64,000 nucleotides of DNA, taken from NCBI GenBank assembly GCA_014805015.1, contig JAAUYQ010000093.1, positions 1 through 64,000 on the forward strand. Direction: 5' to 3'. The stretch comes from Clostridia bacterium. Its GTDB lineage: Bacteria; Bacillota; Clostridia; Christensenellales; Christensenellaceae. This document shows, one piece after another, positions 19-52,814 of this stretch. A program made the translations under genes and the position numbers. The first letter of the stretch is position 1. Every line of letters begins with the position of its first letter. The notes beneath the pieces were generated by a model. It had not been told where the DNA came from, did no database searches, and saw only the letters and a program-made list of their open reading frames with translations.

Positions 19-95
19 GGCCTGGTAGTTCAGTTGGTTAGAACGCTAGCCTGTCACGCTAGAGGTCGAGAGTTCGAGTCTCTTCCAGGTCGCCA
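19..95 (+). tRNA. tRNA-Asp (GTC)
   Basis: Full cloverleaf with a 7-bp acceptor stem, anticodon GTC in the loop, a T-arm with TTCGAGT and an encoded CCA end. First of five closely spaced tRNAs that probably form one transcript from a promoter left of the window. An identical copy lies on the minus strand at 31939-32015. Confidence 0.97.
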
Positions 96-125
96 TCTTG
101 TCTCTTCTGCTGGGAAGAGACACAT

Positions 126-201
126 GCCTCGGTAGCTCAGTCGGTAGAGCAAGGGACTGAAAATCCCTGTGTCGGTGGTTCGATTCCACTCTGAGGCACC
201 A
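126..201 (+). tRNA. tRNA-Phe (GAA)
   Basis: Acceptor GCCTCGG pairs with CTGAGGC. The anticodon loop reads CTGAAAA with anticodon GAA, and CCA is encoded. Second gene of the tRNA cluster. Confidence 0.97.
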
Positions 202-206
202 CAGTT

Positions 207-282
207 GCTGGTGTAGCTCAATTGGTAGAGCAGCTGATTTGTAATCAGCAGGTCGCGGGTTCGAGTCCCATCACCAGCTCCA
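207..282 (+). tRNA. tRNA-Thr (TGT)
   Basis: Acceptor GCTGGTG pairs with CACCAGC. The anticodon is TGT, flanked by T and A residues, and CCA is encoded. Only five bases separate it from the preceding tRNA-Phe. Confidence 0.97.
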
Positions 283-286
283 CTGA

Positions 287-371
<85 letters not shown>

Positions 372-376
372 GCAGT

Positions 377-463
377 GCGGATATGGCGGAATTGGTAGAC
401 GCGCTAGATTCAGGTTCTAGTGAGTGTACGCTCATGGAGGTTCAAGTCCTCTTATCCGCACCA
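377..463 (+). tRNA. tRNA-Leu (CAG)
   Basis: Class II tRNA with a long variable arm. Acceptor GCGGATA pairs with TATCCGC, the anticodon is CAG, and CCA is encoded. Last gene of the cluster, immediately before a terminator. Confidence 0.96.
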
Positions 464-12005: not shown

Positions 12006-12278
12006 GACGGGACGTGGCAGACACAGCGGATACATAGCCGGCCGAAGGCTGCGGAGATTTACAAAGTGGGTTAGCTGCAGCGCTGTGTTTTTGGCGTTAT
12101 GCCTCTGAGATGCAGAGCTGCTTTTGCCATAGAGGCGATCTGTTGCAGGAGAGGGAAGTGAACCGGCATGGGGATTTGGTTGCCACGTCAGCGTAAACGC
12201 TGCATTTCACGGTGGCAATGCAAAAGTCTGCACACGCAGGCAACGCAGGCAATGTCTGGGCCCTTACTGTTTTTTCTC
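12006..12278. other. Gene-free spacer before the toxin-antitoxin locus
   Basis: No ORF with family resemblance is seen. The stretch holds a small interrupted inverted repeat, TTGCCAC (12180-12186) / GTGGCAA (12212-12218), enclosing a second one, AGCGT / ACGCT. It also holds a tandem 9-base repeat CGCAGGCAA at about 12235-12252. No clear terminator for the preceding gene is visible. Confidence 0.4.
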
Positions 12279-12307
12279 TTGACGATGTGCAAAAAGTCCA
12301 GTACAAT
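12279..12307 (+). promoter_or_regulatory. Sigma-A-type promoter of the ToxI-like antitoxin RNA
   Basis: -35 TTGACG (12279-12284) and -10 TACAAT (12302-12307) are separated by exactly 17 bases. The predicted start at about 12314 lies directly in front of the first 37-base repeat, as expected for a type III antitoxin RNA. Confidence 0.8.
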
Positions 12308-12316
12308 ATATCAAAC

Positions 12317-12390
12317 AGCGGAGATTCCCTGCCATATAGTGGGAAGCGAAAAAAGCGGAGATTCCCTGCCATACAGTGGGAAGCGAAAAA
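12317..12390 (+). repeat. Two tandem 37-bp antitoxin repeats
   Basis: Unit 1 is 12317-12353 and unit 2 is 12354-12390. They differ at one position (CCATATAGT against CCATACAGT) and abut directly, so this is not a CRISPR with spacers. Three bases of a third unit (AGC) follow before the terminator stem. Confidence 0.95.
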
Positions 12391-12393
12391 AGC

Positions 12394-12423
12394 AAGAGGA
12401 GGCATTTGCTTCCTCTTTTTTTT
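12394..12423 (+). terminator. Terminator between antitoxin repeats and toxin gene
   Basis: Stem AAGAGGA (12394-12400) / TCCTCTT (12411-12417) with a run of eight T ending at 12423. In type III loci this attenuator lets most transcripts stop after the antitoxin and a minority read into the toxin. The toxin's GGAG ribosome binding site follows immediately at 12424-12427. Confidence 0.88.
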
Positions 12424-12433
12424 GGAGTGTGAA

Positions 12434-12703
12434 ATGGAGTTACGACTGTTCAGGATACGGGATGACTATATCAGTCATCTGCGAGCATACGATTCTCACG
12501 TCATGATGAACAAATCAGGCCGACCGTATGTCGGTGTGGTCTTCGATATCGGCACGTGCTGCTACTTTGCGCCGCTGACTTCGCCAAAGTCTAAGCACGC
12601 CAAGATGTGTAATTCCATAGATTTCATTAAGATTGCACGTGGACGCTACGGTGCCATCTGCTTGAATAATATGATTCCTGACACCATGGATCTTGTACAG
12701 TAA
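12434..12703 (+). CDS. ToxN/AbiQ-family type III toxin, N-terminal part ending at an in-frame TAA
   Basis: The 89 residues match my recollection of the ToxN/AbiQ endoribonuclease family. They open with a ...DDYISHLRAYDSHV segment, then RPYVGVVFDIG, the core motif FAPLTSPKSKH (TSPK at 49-52, near the active site in ToxN), an IDFIKI strand and NNMIPD. GGAG lies 6 bases before the ATG. The known family is about 170-200 residues long, and the reading frame continues after the TAA with matching sequence, so this is half a toxin. The locus lies directly behind the antitoxin repeats and terminator. The region looks less GC-rich than its neighbours, suggesting acquisition. Activity as read is doubtful. 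Confidence 0.85.
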   Translation: MELRLFRIRDDYISHLRAYDSHVMMNKSGRPYVGVVFDIGTCCYFAPLTSPKSKHAKMCNSIDFIKIARGRYGAICLNNMIPDTMDLVQ

Positions 12704-13165
12704 ATAGTCTTCAAAGAGGAACCGCCAGCTTATGGTCGTCTGCTTCAGAACCAGGTGCTCTGGATCCGCGAAAACAAAAATAAGCAGAAAATCATGACCT
12801 CTGCCGCTAAGCTGCATGCTCTGCTGCTGCGAGACAGTGATGAACGCTTCAACCAGCATGAACGGGCAATACGCAGGCGAAGCTGCAACCTGAAACTGCT
12901 GGAAGAAGCGCTCCTCGAGTTTTCCAGGCGGAACCCGGAGACCCCGGAAATGCCGGACGAAACTGATCCCATGGAGCCAGACGGACCTGAAGCGGAAATG
13001 ACAGAGCGGAATACGCTCGGCGGACTGAAGGCAGGTAGGGCGTCGCAGTGCGGGCACCCGACTGCGACGCTGCATGAAAACGAAGGAGAACAAACTGCAC
13101 CAGTCAGTCTGTTCAAAGCAACGAATGAGTCGACAGAAGAACCCAGGGACAGCCAGTCGGAATGA
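12704..13165 (+). pseudogene. C-terminal remainder of the ToxN-like toxin gene, same frame after the stop
   Basis: Directly after the TAA the same frame stays open for 153 codons. It encodes YGRLLQNQVLWIRENK, a helical stretch, and CNLKLLEEALLEF, which correspond to the C-terminal half of ToxN/CptN-type toxins. No frameshift is needed: replacing the single TAA with a sense codon restores a continuous protein. About 70 further residues, acidic and Pro/Glu/Ser-rich, have no counterpart that I recognise in ToxN. The final TGA overlaps the ATG of the primase-helicase gene. Possible internal starts are a GTG at 12755 and an ATG at 12794, neither with a convincing Shine-Dalgarno sequence. Confidence 0.7.
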
Positions 13166-16077
13166 GAAAGCATAGGTGCACAGTGGAGACAGGAGCAATC
13201 GTTAACAGCAAAGCCCGCATCCAGGACAGAATGTACGAGTTTGTGAAACTGGTCGACCGTCTCGACGCTGACGAACCTGTTGTCATCTGCCGGGCAGCGG
13301 ACGGCTCGCTGGGCGCCTGCTCGAAGCGCCAGTGGGACCAGAGCGTCGTGAAACCTGCAGAGCACGCATCTGGTCCTGTCAGCACGGAGAGCAGCGTCGC
13401 CGAAAAGATTGCCCTGTTCCGGTCCTATTTTCGCGGCCGCACGGACGTATATGCGAAACGGTTCTTCTCAGCCGAGACTGGACGGAGCGGATATACACCG
13501 GTGTGCAGGAATGAATGGCGCAAGGGCGTCTGCGACAAGAAGAGCACCCGCTGCGCGGCCTGCAGAAACCGTCAGTTCGTGCCGCTCCGCTCTGCGGCGC
13601 TTGTCGAGCATCTTCGGGGTACGGATGAATACGGCCGGGACGTCGTCGGCCTGTATCCGCTCCTTGCGGACGGATCAGCGTATTTCCTGGCTGCTGACTT
13701 TGACAAGACGGAGTGGAAGCTCGACGCAGCTGCTTACCGCAGCGCCTGCATATCTCTGGGCCTGACGCCGGCCGTGGAGCGGTCGCGCTCAGGTCAGGGC
13801 GCGCATGTGTGGCTCTTTTTTGATACTCCGATACCGGCCGGGAAAGCCCGCCAGCTCGGTGAACTGCTGCTGCATAAGGCGATGGACTTGCGGCCGGAGC
13901 TGTCGTTTGATTCCTTTGATCGGCTTTTCCCTTCTCAGGACACCGTCCCGAAAGGCGGCTTCGGGAATCTCATTGCGCTGCCATTCCAGGGACAGGCCCA
14001 GGCAGATGGAAATTCACTCTTTGTAGACGAAAACTACAATCAGTACGAAGACCAGTGGGCTTTTCTCTCTACGGTGCCCAAGATAACCGGCCGGCAGCTC
14101 GAAGCACTGCTGGCGGAGCAGGCGCTGTCCAGCCTGCAGCCGACAGCTGTGAACCGGGAACCGGCTCCTCCAGGATACACCGAAGAGCTCGCGGTTCTTG
14201 ATGGCAGCATGCTCCGTATTCCGAAGCAGGGTCTGCCCCGGGAACTGATCGCCGATCTGCGGCGAATCGGCACTTTCCCCAATCCGGAATTCTATAAAAA
14301 GCAGGCTATGCGGCTGTCTGTCTACGGCATTCCGCGGGTTATCGACTGCACGGAGGCCGATGAGAAATACCTGGCGCTGCCGCGCGGGTGCAGAGCCGAG
14401 CTTGCAGAGTATCTGCGCGAACGGGGAATTCGGAACACGTGGCACGACGAGCGGAACAGCGGCCGGGAAATTGACGTGACTTTTACCGGGACGCTGCGGG
14501 AAGAGCAGGCAGAAGCGGCCAGAAAACTGCTCGAACATGATACCGGCGTCCTCGCGGCAGCCACAGCATTCGGCAAAACTGTGGTTGCGGCATACATTAT
14601 GGCACAGTGCAGAGTGAACACTCTCATTCTGGTACCGTCCACTGCGCTGCTTGAACAGTGGAAAGGTGCACTCACGCGTTTCCTGGACATACGGGAAACG
14701 ACGGAGGTCCCGCCAGGTCTGGGCTGCAGGCGGCGCCTCGAGGTGATCGGCCAGCTCGGCGGCGGCAGACACACCAATGCCGGAATCATTGATATTGCTG
14801 TTATGCAGTCGCTGCTGGAAGGCCCGGAGAAGAAGGCCAAAAGTCTGGTGGGCGAGTATGGTCTGGTTATCTGCGACGAGTGCCACCATGTACCGGCTGT
14901 TACGTTCGAACGAGTACTCCGGGGTGTGCGGGCCCGGCGGATCTACGGGCTTTCCGCCACGCCCGCAAGGGCTGACGGTCTGCAGAAGATCATCTTCATG
15001 CAGTGCGGTCCAGTGCGCTTCGACATCGACGCGCGGCAGATGGCAGCTTCCCAGGACTTCAGGCGCATCATGCTGCCACGGTTCACCAGGGCAAGAGTCG
15101 CACCCGGGACGACGATCCAGGATATGCACGCAGCACTTTGTGCGAATGCCGACCGCAATGAGCTGATTCTGCGTGATGCAGCTGAGCTGAGCGCGGCCGG
15201 ACGGACACTGATGCTTCTGACGTCCCGCCGGGAACATGCCGCCTTCCTGGCAGAGGAACTCGCAGACAGGACAGAAGCGCAGGTATTCCTGCTGCTGGGA
15301 TCGGATCCTGTATCTGCCAGACGGGAGAAATTACGGACACTGCGCGCGGCGGATCCTGAGGAACCGCTGATTATCGTCTCCACAAACCGGTATGCAGGGG
15401 AAGGCTTTGATCTGCCGCATCTGGACACGCTGCTGCTCACAGCCCCGTTTTCCTGGAAGGGCACGCTCGCGCAGAATGCCGGCCGGCTGCATCGGGACTA
15501 TCCCGGAAAAAAGGACGTCCGCATTTATGATTACGTGGACCTGTATGTACCGGCGGCAGAACGGATGTTCGCCAAACGGCGTGCGGAGTACACCCGGCAG
15601 GGATATGAGATTGAGCCGGGTCTGAGGGAAAGCCGGGCCTGCGCCACCTATAGTGGTCCACAGTTCCTGGAACCGTTTGCCGCGGATCTGCGCGCGGCCG
15701 CGCAGGAGATCTATGTCTGTTCAAACGAAACAGACCCTGGTCATCTGGCGGAACTTGGCGCACTGCTCGCAGAGCAGCGGAAGGCAGGAGTAAATGTTCG
15801 CGTAAGACTGGGCGGCTCGAGCACAGAAAGCAGCGGGGAAGCGATGCTGCAGCAGCTGGGCATAGAAGCGGAGACAGACCCGGCAGTGACGTACTCGGCT
15901 GCGGTCATCGACCGGCAGATTGTCTGGTACGGCAGCATGAGCCTGCTCGGCTCGACGGATGGCGATCTGCTGCGCTTTGAAAGCAGGGATGCAGCCGGCG
16001 AATTCCTTGATCTTGAGCTCAACGAGGCAGAATCAGGGGAGAGATGGGAGCAGCTTTCCCTGGACAAGCGGATCTGA
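13162..16077 (+). CDS. TOTE-type archaeo-eukaryotic primase + SF2 helicase + degenerate PLD-like protein
   Basis: A 971-residue multidomain protein. Cysteines C115, C124, C131 and C134 form a probable zinc-binding element. A primase-like domain (about 160-300) has AADFD (D179, D181) and the SGQGAHVW histidine motif (H215), then FDSFDRLFPSQDTVPKGGFG. An SF2 helicase follows, with Walker A ATAFGKT (467-473), DECH (572-575), SAT (598-600) and motif VI QNAGRLHR (771-778). The C-terminus (about 835-950) resembles a PLD nuclease domain (IDRQIVWYGSMSLLG), but the HxK of the HKD motif is replaced by TYS. The architecture fits the family described in TOTE biological-conflict systems, so a role in defence is inferred. 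The ATG overlaps the toxin frame's stop; an ATG at 13231 is an alternative start. Confidence 0.85.
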   Translation: MRKHRCTVETGAIVNSKARIQDRMYEFVKLVDRLDADEPVVICRAADGSLGACSKRQWDQSVVKPAEHASGPVSTESSVAEKIALFRSYFRGRTDVYAKRFFSAETGRSGYTPVCRNEWRKGVCDKKSTRCAACRNRQFVPLRSAALVEHLRGTDEYGRDVVGLYPLLADGSAYFLAADFDKTEWKLDAAAYRSACISLGLTPAVERSRSGQGAHVWLFFDTPIPAGKARQLGELLLHKAMDLRPELSFDSFDRLFPSQDTVPKGGFGNLIALPFQGQAQADGNSLFVDENYNQYEDQWAFLSTVPKITGRQLEALLAEQALSSLQPTAVNREPAPPGYTEELAVLDGSMLRIPKQGLPRELIADLRRIGTFPNPEFYKKQAMRLSVYGIPRVIDCTEADEKYLALPRGCRAELAEYLRERGIRNTWHDERNSGREIDVTFTGTLREEQAEAARKLLEHDTGVLAAATAFGKTVVAAYIMAQCRVNTLILVPSTALLEQWKGALTRFLDIRETTEVPPGLGCRRRLEVIGQLGGGRHTNAGIIDIAVMQSLLEGPEKKAKSLVGEYGLVICDECHHVPAVTFERVLRGVRARRIYGLSATPARADGLQKIIFMQCGPVRFDIDARQMAASQDFRRIMLPRFTRARVAPGTTIQDMHAALCANADRNELILRDAAELSAAGRTLMLLTSRREHAAFLAEELADRTEAQVFLLLGSDPVSARREKLRTLRAADPEEPLIIVSTNRYAGEGFDLPHLDTLLLTAPFSWKGTLAQNAGRLHRDYPGKKDVRIYDYVDLYVPAAERMFAKRRAEYTRQGYEIEPGLRESRACATYSGPQFLEPFAADLRAAAQEIYVCSNETDPGHLAELGALLAEQRKAGVNVRVRLGGSSTESSGEAMLQQLGIEAETDPAVTYSAAVIDRQIVWYGSMSLLGSTDGDLLRFESRDAAGEFLDLELNEAESGERWEQLSLDKRI

Positions 16078-16145
16078 ATGGCCGCAGAAAGATGGCAGGC
16101 GGCAGCGAAGGCCGCCCTGGGCTCTCCTGCGTAAAAAGACACGAA

Positions 16146-16180
16146 AGACCTCCTGTCCGGGCGGTTGAGGCAGGAGGTCT
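16146..16180 (-). terminator. Terminator-like hairpin after the integrase gene
   Basis: AGACCTCCTG (16146-16155) pairs with CAGGAGGTCT (16171-16180). On the minus strand it is followed by a T-rich stretch, so it suits the integrase transcript; it also lies after the helicase gene on the plus strand. The surrounding 16078-16259 has no gene. Confidence 0.6.
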
Positions 16181-16259
16181 GTATCGGTCCCCGCCGGATC
16201 GCAGGCTTCTGAAGCCGCATCCCGTGAAGAGCAGCAGTCAGGCTGGGAGGCTGGACGCG

Positions 16260-31782: not shown

Positions 31783-31856
31783 TGGAGGCGCCACCCAGAT
31801 TTGAACTGGGGGTAAAGGATTTGCAGTCCTCTGCCTTACCACTTGGCTATGGCGCC
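31783..31856 (-). tRNA. tRNA-Cys (GCA)
   Basis: Minus-strand acceptor GGCGCCA pairs perfectly with TGGCGCC. The anticodon is GCA and CCA is encoded. Last gene of the operon. Confidence 0.97.
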
Positions 31857-31859
31857 CAG

Positions 31860-31934
31860 TGGAGCGGAAGACGGGATTCGAACCCGCGACATTCGCCTTG
31901 GCAAGGCGACACTCTACCACTGAGTCACTCCCGC
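31860..31934 (-). tRNA. tRNA-Gly (GCC)
   Basis: Minus-strand acceptor GCGGGAG pairs with CTTCCGC with one wobble and one A-T. The anticodon is GCC and CCA is encoded. Confidence 0.97.
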
Positions 31935-31938
31935 AAAA

Positions 31939-32015
31939 TGGCGACCTGGAAGAGACTCGAACTCTCGACCTCTAGCGTGACAGGCTAGCGTTCTAACCAA
32001 CTGAACTACCAGGCC
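31939..32015 (-). tRNA. tRNA-Asp (GTC), second copy
   Basis: Identical over all 77 bases to the tRNA-Asp at 19-95 in the other cluster. Confidence 0.98.
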
Positions 32016-32020
32016 ATGCT

Positions 32021-32096
32021 TGGTGGGAACAACAGGGCTCGAACCTGTGACCCCCTGCTTGTAAGGCAGGTGCTCTCCCAGCTGAGCTATGCTCCC
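32021..32096 (-). tRNA. tRNA-Val (TAC)
   Basis: Minus-strand acceptor GGGAGCA pairs with TGTTCCC with one wobble. The anticodon is TAC and CCA is encoded. First gene of the operon, about 30 bases after its promoter. Confidence 0.97.
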
Positions 32097-52630: not shown

Positions 52631-52814
52631 CTGGAAATCCGTCAGAGGTGCGCCTCGTGATCAGTACGCTGCGTCAGGTTCCGGCCATGAACCGCACACC
52701 GCAGCTGAAAGGCACCGGCGCCGAAGGACAGGTCGCAGCCGGCTTCCTGCTCCTGGGCGGACGGTCAACAGCCGTCCGACTGTCATGATCCATGGTGCGC
52801 TGCAGAATTTCCGG
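52631..52814 (+). promoter_or_regulatory. Lysine riboswitch (L-box) aptamer
   Basis: P1 forms from CTGGAAAT (52631-52638) and ATTTCCGG (52807-52814). Conserved L-box elements appear in order: AGAGGTGCG at 52644-52652, ATCAGTA, AAAGGCACCGGCGCCGAAG at about 52708-52726, and a long hairpin GGACGGTC / GCCGTCC followed by ACTGTCATG. These correspond to the B. subtilis lysC leader elements known to me. Upstream of asd-dapA-dapB, a lysine-responsive off-switch is the expected logic. The element fills most of the 463-base gap between the divergent genes. Confidence 0.85.

What the first reader, a model, noticed from the sequence alone, without database searches (positions are those of the whole stretch)
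12279..13165. Type III (ToxIN-like) toxin-antitoxin locus with a two-repeat antitoxin RNA
The sequence shows, in order, a near-consensus promoter, two abutting 37-base repeats with one mismatch, a terminator with eight T, a GGAG site and a gene encoding RPYVGVVFDIG...FAPLTSPKSKH...NNMIP. This order and these motifs match the ToxN/AbiQ/CptN type III family by established knowledge. Only about 2.1 repeats are present, near the low end of known systems. The repeat sequence is unlike any that I can name, so the antitoxin may be a new sequence variant.
Basis: partly seen in the sequence, partly recalled or inferred. Interest (0 to 1): 0.82.

Follow-up and report, generated by a model that had tools for sequence, protein, structure and literature searches.

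The report
Broken ToxIN toxin-antitoxin locus
This is an ordinary bacterial type III toxin-antitoxin locus, an RNA antitoxin next to a toxin gene, brought in on a small DNA insertion, and its toxin gene is cut short by a stop codon, so it is probably a decaying relic.

Summary
In detail: promoter-like site, two 37-nt repeats, terminator, GGAG and a ToxN frame stand in the order stated. The frame matches Pfam ToxN_toxin (125.7 bits with the stop read as X; 88.1 and 27.6 bits for the parts before and after it) and PADLOC AbiQ. The repeats are not of a new kind: 76 of 98 ToxN relatives have a tandem array of period 34-41 upstream, and the window unit matches the nearest one at 29 of 37 positions. 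Stem 2 of the pseudoknot shows compensatory changes at four of four pairs in 14 chosen units.

What the finding does not say is that an in-frame TAA at 12701-12703, codon 90, ends the toxin before the residues matching Tyr110 and Gln117 of solved ToxN. This genome shows no other ToxN match. Broken ToxN alleles occur elsewhere too. The locus lies in a 4.25-kb insertion, with a primase-helicase gene, between genes that are neighbours in 8 of 9 relatives examined. No conserved link between ToxN and that helicase was found.

Verdict: a member of a known family, probably inactivated; low interest.

The parts
12006..16259 (.). 4.25-kb insertion between the Met-gamma-lyase gene and the XerS-like gene
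   Evidence: in 8 of 9 family relatives examined these two genes are direct convergent neighbours, 40-71 nt apart between BLAST-aligned ends; no convincing flanking direct repeat
12279..12307 (+). sigma-70-like promoter TTGACG-17-TACAAT
   Evidence: 10 of 12 matches, but 0.9 such sites expected by chance
12313..12349 (+). antitoxin RNA repeat unit 1
   Evidence: tandem score far above shuffles
12350..12386 (+). antitoxin RNA repeat unit 2
   Evidence: stem 2 pairs supported by compensatory changes in relatives
12387..12393 (+). start of a third, partial repeat (A-rich)
12394..12423 (+). intrinsic terminator between antitoxin and toxin
   Evidence: 10-pair hairpin, eight T
12424..12427 (+). GGAG ribosome-binding-like site
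   Evidence: read in sequence
12434..12703 (+). toxN, 5' part: 89 codons, then in-frame TAA at 12701-12703
   Evidence: Pfam PF13958 88.1 bits for 12434-12700; translation
12704..12916 (+). toxN, 3' part, same frame, after the stop; the frame stays open to 13165
   Evidence: 12704-13162 scores 27.6 bits to PF13958, profile positions 101-157
13162..16077 (+). neighbour in the insertion: archaeo-eukaryotic primase domain plus SF2 helicase, 971 aa
   Evidence: Pfam PF22548 307 bits, ResIII 71.8 bits; PADLOC PrimPol 279.7 bits

Best explanation
A horizontally acquired ToxIN-family type III toxin-antitoxin locus whose toxin gene has been inactivated. As such loci work (PMC5086642 passages; that the terminator is leaky is recalled), one promoter makes an RNA of tandem pseudoknot units, some transcription passes the terminator into toxN, ToxN cuts the precursor in A-rich stretches and is held inactive by the units. 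Here the toxin ends at residue 89, so that cycle is probably dead: the antitoxin RNA may still be made, but would stay an unprocessed two-unit RNA without a toxin. Shown: layout, homology, stop codon, insertion, covariation of stem 2 in relatives. Inferred: transcription, inactivity of the fragment, decay under relaxed selection.
For: PF13958 hits on both sides of the stop and 125.7 bits with X at the stop; PADLOC AbiQ 114.5 bits; solved ToxN/AbiQ 4ato, 7d8o, 2xd0, 4glk matched by sequence. 76 of 98 relatives with a tandem array within 500 nt upstream of toxN. Pseudoknot: in 14 of 66 units, chosen by me for a common register, 94.6% of cells pair against 84.8% in shuffles (0 of 500 reach it) and 4 of 4 pairs of stem 2 show changes on both sides; over the full set 44 of 66 units have a pseudoknot score reached by at most 5 of 100 mononucleotide shuffles, the window unit by 3 of 100. 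In-frame TAA. By the alignment and the residues named in PMC8860590 (passages), ToxN_Ec Thr52, Ser53 and Lys55 correspond to window T49, S50 and K52, before the stop, while Tyr110 and Gln117 correspond to Y100 and Q107, after it. The genome (97.8% complete) shows one ToxN match, this one. GC 46% at 12251-12750 against 60% for the window and the gene order of 8 of 9 relatives point to insertion.
Against: The 3' part still scores as ToxN (27.6 bits) and no frameshift is seen, so the stop is recent or possibly an assembly error; no reads were at hand. NCBIfam gives no match for the toxin; Rfam gives none for the RNA at gathering level and no ToxI-like family among 12 weak matches up to E = 10. 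Plain folding of the RNA is not clearly better than shuffles (z -1.38, 18 of 200; pseudoknots not modelled). In one search two other measures are weak: pairs with a change on both sides, 5 (25 of 500 shuffles reach it), and further pair types, 11 (423 of 500 reach it); in stem 1 only one of four pairs has a change on both sides. The third pair of stem 1 is an A-G mismatch in the window unless stem 1 takes a shifted register. 21 of 98 relatives showed no array by my threshold, 16 of them with a full 500 nt upstream. Catalytic Lys33 is Arg here, but Arg also in 90 of 91 relatives.
Confidence: 0.82

Rival explanations
1. Functional ToxIN: the stop is an assembly or sequencing error, or it is read through often enough to give active toxin.
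For: Both parts conserved in one frame, no second lesion seen. Three other genes (L028, which is the same as L179; L052; L077) also have a single internal stop in an otherwise open toxN.
Against: Split, frameshifted or decayed toxN alleles also occur (G719, G857 and G1031, G676, G1014), as expected for pseudogenes. The stops differ in codon (TAA, TGA) and, apart from L052 and L077, in place. Most relatives are open: 112 of 145 loci classed intact; of the 23 with a stop in the matched range, 14 show the gene's own end and 3 a stop at the start edge of the match.
Confidence: 0.13
2. Orphan antitoxin kept for its own sake: the RNA protects the cell from ToxN of incoming elements (anti-addiction).
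For: Repeats, promoter-like site and terminator look intact while toxN is not. Precursor ToxI can neutralise ToxN_Pa (PMC5086642, passages).
Against: Antitoxins of different systems do not cross-talk in the cases tested (same source, passages). No selection test possible: the best-ranked ToxN relative is 46% identical (L009), and the highest value seen is 54% over residues 6-107 (L028). One other nonsense allele, L077, has a single repeat unit.
Confidence: 0.08
3. ToxN and the primase-helicase form one compound defence operon; the frames overlap by ATGA at 13162-13165.
For: Both lie in the same insertion, same strand, overlapping frames.
Against: tblastn of the helicase against 101 ToxN-search loci finds its own copies and two weak hits at 22-24% identity (L065, L101). 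A ToxN profile over 55 helicase-search loci, 20 of them fetched regions of 3-12 kb, finds only the window's own gene; many flanks are short. GC differs (46% against 60%).
Confidence: 0.03

Closest known systems
ToxIN / AbiQ family of type III toxin-antitoxin systems (PF13958; solved 4ato, 7d8o, 2xd0, and AbiQ 4glk)
   Same: Order of parts, unit of 37 nt in 2.2 copies, the S-P-K-x-K-H stretch at the active site, repeat type shared with relatives
   Different: toxN stopped at codon 90; about 80 more codons open after the end of the ToxN match; two full units, where 36 of 76 relative arrays have 2.8 copies or more
ToxN loci of mostly uncultured Clostridia and Bacilli (L009-L088)
   Same: Toxin 36-54% identical in the matched part and the same repeat type
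   Different: Mostly open toxN; no close relative of the primase-helicase as neighbour

Membership tests
ToxIN type III toxin-antitoxin | ToxN-family toxin gene | tested here: met
   PF13958 125.7 bits with X at the stop, parts 88.1 and 27.6, cut-off 25
ToxIN type III toxin-antitoxin | tandem array of repeats of about 35 nt just upstream | tested here: met
ToxIN type III toxin-antitoxin | terminator between array and toxin gene | tested here: met
ToxIN type III toxin-antitoxin | repeat folds as H-type pseudoknot | tested here: inconclusive
   stem 2 well supported in relatives; window stem 1 has a mismatch or a shifted register; 3 of 100 shuffles score as well as the window unit
ToxIN type III toxin-antitoxin | intact toxin reading frame | tested here: not met
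   in-frame TAA at 12701-12703: a degraded member by descent, probably not a working system
ToxIN type III toxin-antitoxin | endoribonuclease activity neutralised by the RNA | not testable with these tools
   needs bench work
CptIN or TenpIN families | toxin of those families | not tested
   no comparison with CptN or TenpN sequences was made; the ToxN/AbiQ models matched well

The most novel reading that the evidence does not exclude
Some ToxN genes carry a single stop codon as a brake: a leaky stop in the stretch before the antitoxin-binding helix keeps toxin output very low, and conditions that raise read-through would arm it. The window, L052 and L077 have their stops in that stretch; L052 and L077 have them at the same alignment place with different codons, while an open relative of L077 exists at 83.6% DNA identity (L035).
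Probability: 0.04. Interest if true: 0.6.

Novelty: new member of a known kind. Interest (0 to 1): 0.15.

Why it matters
As it stands, little: one more ToxIN locus, useful as an example of how these systems enter small insertions and lose their toxin while the RNA part stays. If the antitoxin is still made, it is a natural case for asking whether orphan ToxI RNAs protect against other ToxIN carriers.

Tried and rejected
New antitoxin sequence class: rejected; nearest relative unit 29 of 37 identical, score 21 against a maximum of 15 for 2000 mononucleotide shuffles. Conserved ToxN plus primase-helicase operon: rejected as far as reach. Split toxin made from two separately started parts: considered; the first ATG, GTG or TTG in frame after the stop is GTG 12755, with no GGAG-like site that I can see, and it drops the residues before it. 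Rfam and NCBIfam gave nothing useful. DNA relatives on plasmids: none; exact 19-base repeat stretch in viral contigs: none; by protein, 106 plasmid records and 2 phage records, each under 60% identity. Direct repeats marking the insertion ends: none convincing. No tree and no structure prediction was run.

Rows dropped or changed: L003 was dropped from the 67 distinct units and L004 and L010 were re-registered by hand; the 14 units are my choice out of 66; the array of L030 was a run of N and was left out; the promoter count used the 71 arrays with at least 70 nt upstream, the window included. L072 had a full ToxN match but none, where whole frames were scanned.

Literature: a search for ToxN with truncated or pseudogene listed 9 papers, one for orphan antitoxin or anti-addiction with type III held 34 and listed 12; of these I saw the listings, and passages of PMC8860590. 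The general search held 30 and listed 20. Two searches for the TOTE conflict system found no paper.

Full report
What is there. The sequence at 12279-13165 holds the parts in the order described. The two repeat copies are 12313-12349 and 12350-12386, 35 of 37 identical in that register, 2.2 copies in all. Their tandem score is 37, against at most 12 in 60 mononucleotide shuffles of the region and 13 in the rest of the window. The terminator has 10 pairs and eight T. The promoter site scores 10 of 12, but about one such site is expected by chance in the stretch. In one search, 41 of 71 arrays (the window's among them) have a site of 9 or more within 75 nt upstream, against 24% of shuffles.

The toxin. 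The frame from 12434 runs 89 codons to TAA at 12701-12703 and then on in the same frame to 13165. Pfam ToxN_toxin matches 12434-12700 with 88.1 bits, 12704-13162 with 27.6 bits and the whole with X at the stop with 125.7 bits. PADLOC names it AbiQ, 114.5 bits; NCBIfam gives nothing. Four distinct solved ToxN/AbiQ sequences match. [quoted passage not shown] By the alignment (numbering of 7d8o worked out by me from the tag length) the window has R30, T49, S50 and K52 before the stop and Y100 and Q107 after it. In 91 relatives the serine and the lysine do not vary, and the arginine stands in 90. A product of 89 residues lacks the second half of the protein; that it is inactive is inference.

The antitoxin. 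Of 98 relatives, 76 have a tandem array of period 34-41 within 500 nt upstream; one has a run of N there, and 21 showed none, five of them with less than 500 nt upstream. The unit type is shared: A-run, GCGG or similar, a short arm, CC, AAG, the matching arm. The window unit is 29 of 37 identical to that of L014, score 21; the maximum of 2000 shuffles is 15. On 14 units that I chose out of 66 for a common register, 94.6% of cells pair, which 0 of 500 shuffles reach, and 4 of 4 pairs of stem 2 show changes on both sides; in stem 1 one of 4 does. Sliding the partners lowers pairing to 45-60%. Two other measures are weaker (25 and 423 of 500 shuffles reach them). On all 66 units, 44 score as a pseudoknot at a level reached by at most 5 of 100 mononucleotide shuffles each; the window unit by 3 of 100. 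In the family register the third pair of stem 1 is A-G in the window; a shifted stem 1 is possible. Ordinary folding of the window RNA is unremarkable (z -1.38). Rfam has no match. The number of units is in the known range: antiQ keeps working at 1.8 repeats, ToxI_Pa needs 2.5 (PMC5086642, passages; its section on the fold of the toxins read whole).

Broken toxins elsewhere. One search classed 145 loci (the window among them, some genes held twice): 112 intact, 23 with a stop inside the matched range, 8 short, 2 without a hit. Of the 23, 14 show the gene's own end, 3 a stop at the start edge of the match, 1 (L196) a stop near the C-terminus, and 5 an internal stop: the window (TAA), L052 (TGA), L077 (TAA), and L028 and L179 (TAA), which are the same gene. 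L052 and L077 stop at the same alignment place. Split, frameshifted or decayed copies were seen in G719, G857, G1031, G676 and G1014. The way of collecting favours nonsense over frameshift, because tblastn reads through stops. L028 and L052 keep three antitoxin units and L077 one, counted by eye. So a broken toxin beside a whole-looking antitoxin is not peculiar to this window. The window's genome has no second ToxN match, and the exact 16-base repeat core occurs only at its two places, with two more places at two mismatches.

The insertion. In the family, 14 relatives have the Met-gamma-lyase gene; I examined nine. In eight of nine the order is mutL, miaA (labels by eye), Met-gamma-lyase, then the XerS-like gene facing it, 40-71 nt apart between BLAST-aligned ends. 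In the ninth (L224) no XerS match was found in the stretch. The window has 4.25 kb there: GC 46% at 12251-12750, 60% in the primase-helicase, 60% for the window. Of 18 genomes of the family, only the window's has a full-length copy of that helicase. The primase family itself is common (37 of 398 genomes of the phylum, 36 over the cut-off), but a ToxN profile over 55 helicase-search loci, 20 of them fetched regions, finds only the window's own gene, and tblastn of the helicase over 101 ToxN-search loci finds only its own copies and two weak hits. Many flanks are short, so rare neighbours could be missed.

Conclusion. A ToxIN locus by descent, acquired, with its toxin most likely inactivated by a nonsense codon. 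The family membership is firm; that it works as a toxin-antitoxin system is not supported. That the stop is an assembly error cannot be excluded here, because no reads are held.

Noticed in passing
window 13162-16077: 971-aa protein with an archaeo-eukaryotic primase domain (PF22548, labelled TOTE conflict system) and an SF2 helicase; PADLOC PrimPol. It shares the insertion with ToxIN, and its start overlaps the end of the open frame after toxN by ATGA.
   Followed up: partly
L226 1901-2460, L227, L230: A diverged toxN broken by a frameshift at an A-run in L226 and L227, near a topoisomerase-like gene (label by eye), perhaps a conjugative element; L226 and L227, from two genera, are 99.8% identical over 4.4 kb. 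Two diverged repeat units stand upstream in L226 (by eye). Slippage at the A-run could be worth a look.
   Followed up: partly
L037, L060, L086: Two toxN genes in one locus.
   Followed up: no
L007 1432-1671: A toxN start in a genome of the same family, matching only about 40 profile positions; a transposase-like frame follows on the other strand (label by eye).
   Followed up: no
window 13040-13070: Inverted repeat with 10-nt arms inside the open frame after toxN, read by eye (below the minimum length); no T run follows.
   Followed up: no
window 52635-52810: Lysine riboswitch, 82.5 bits.
   Followed up: no
window 19-460 and 31786-32096: Two clusters of tRNA genes, five and four.
   Followed up: no
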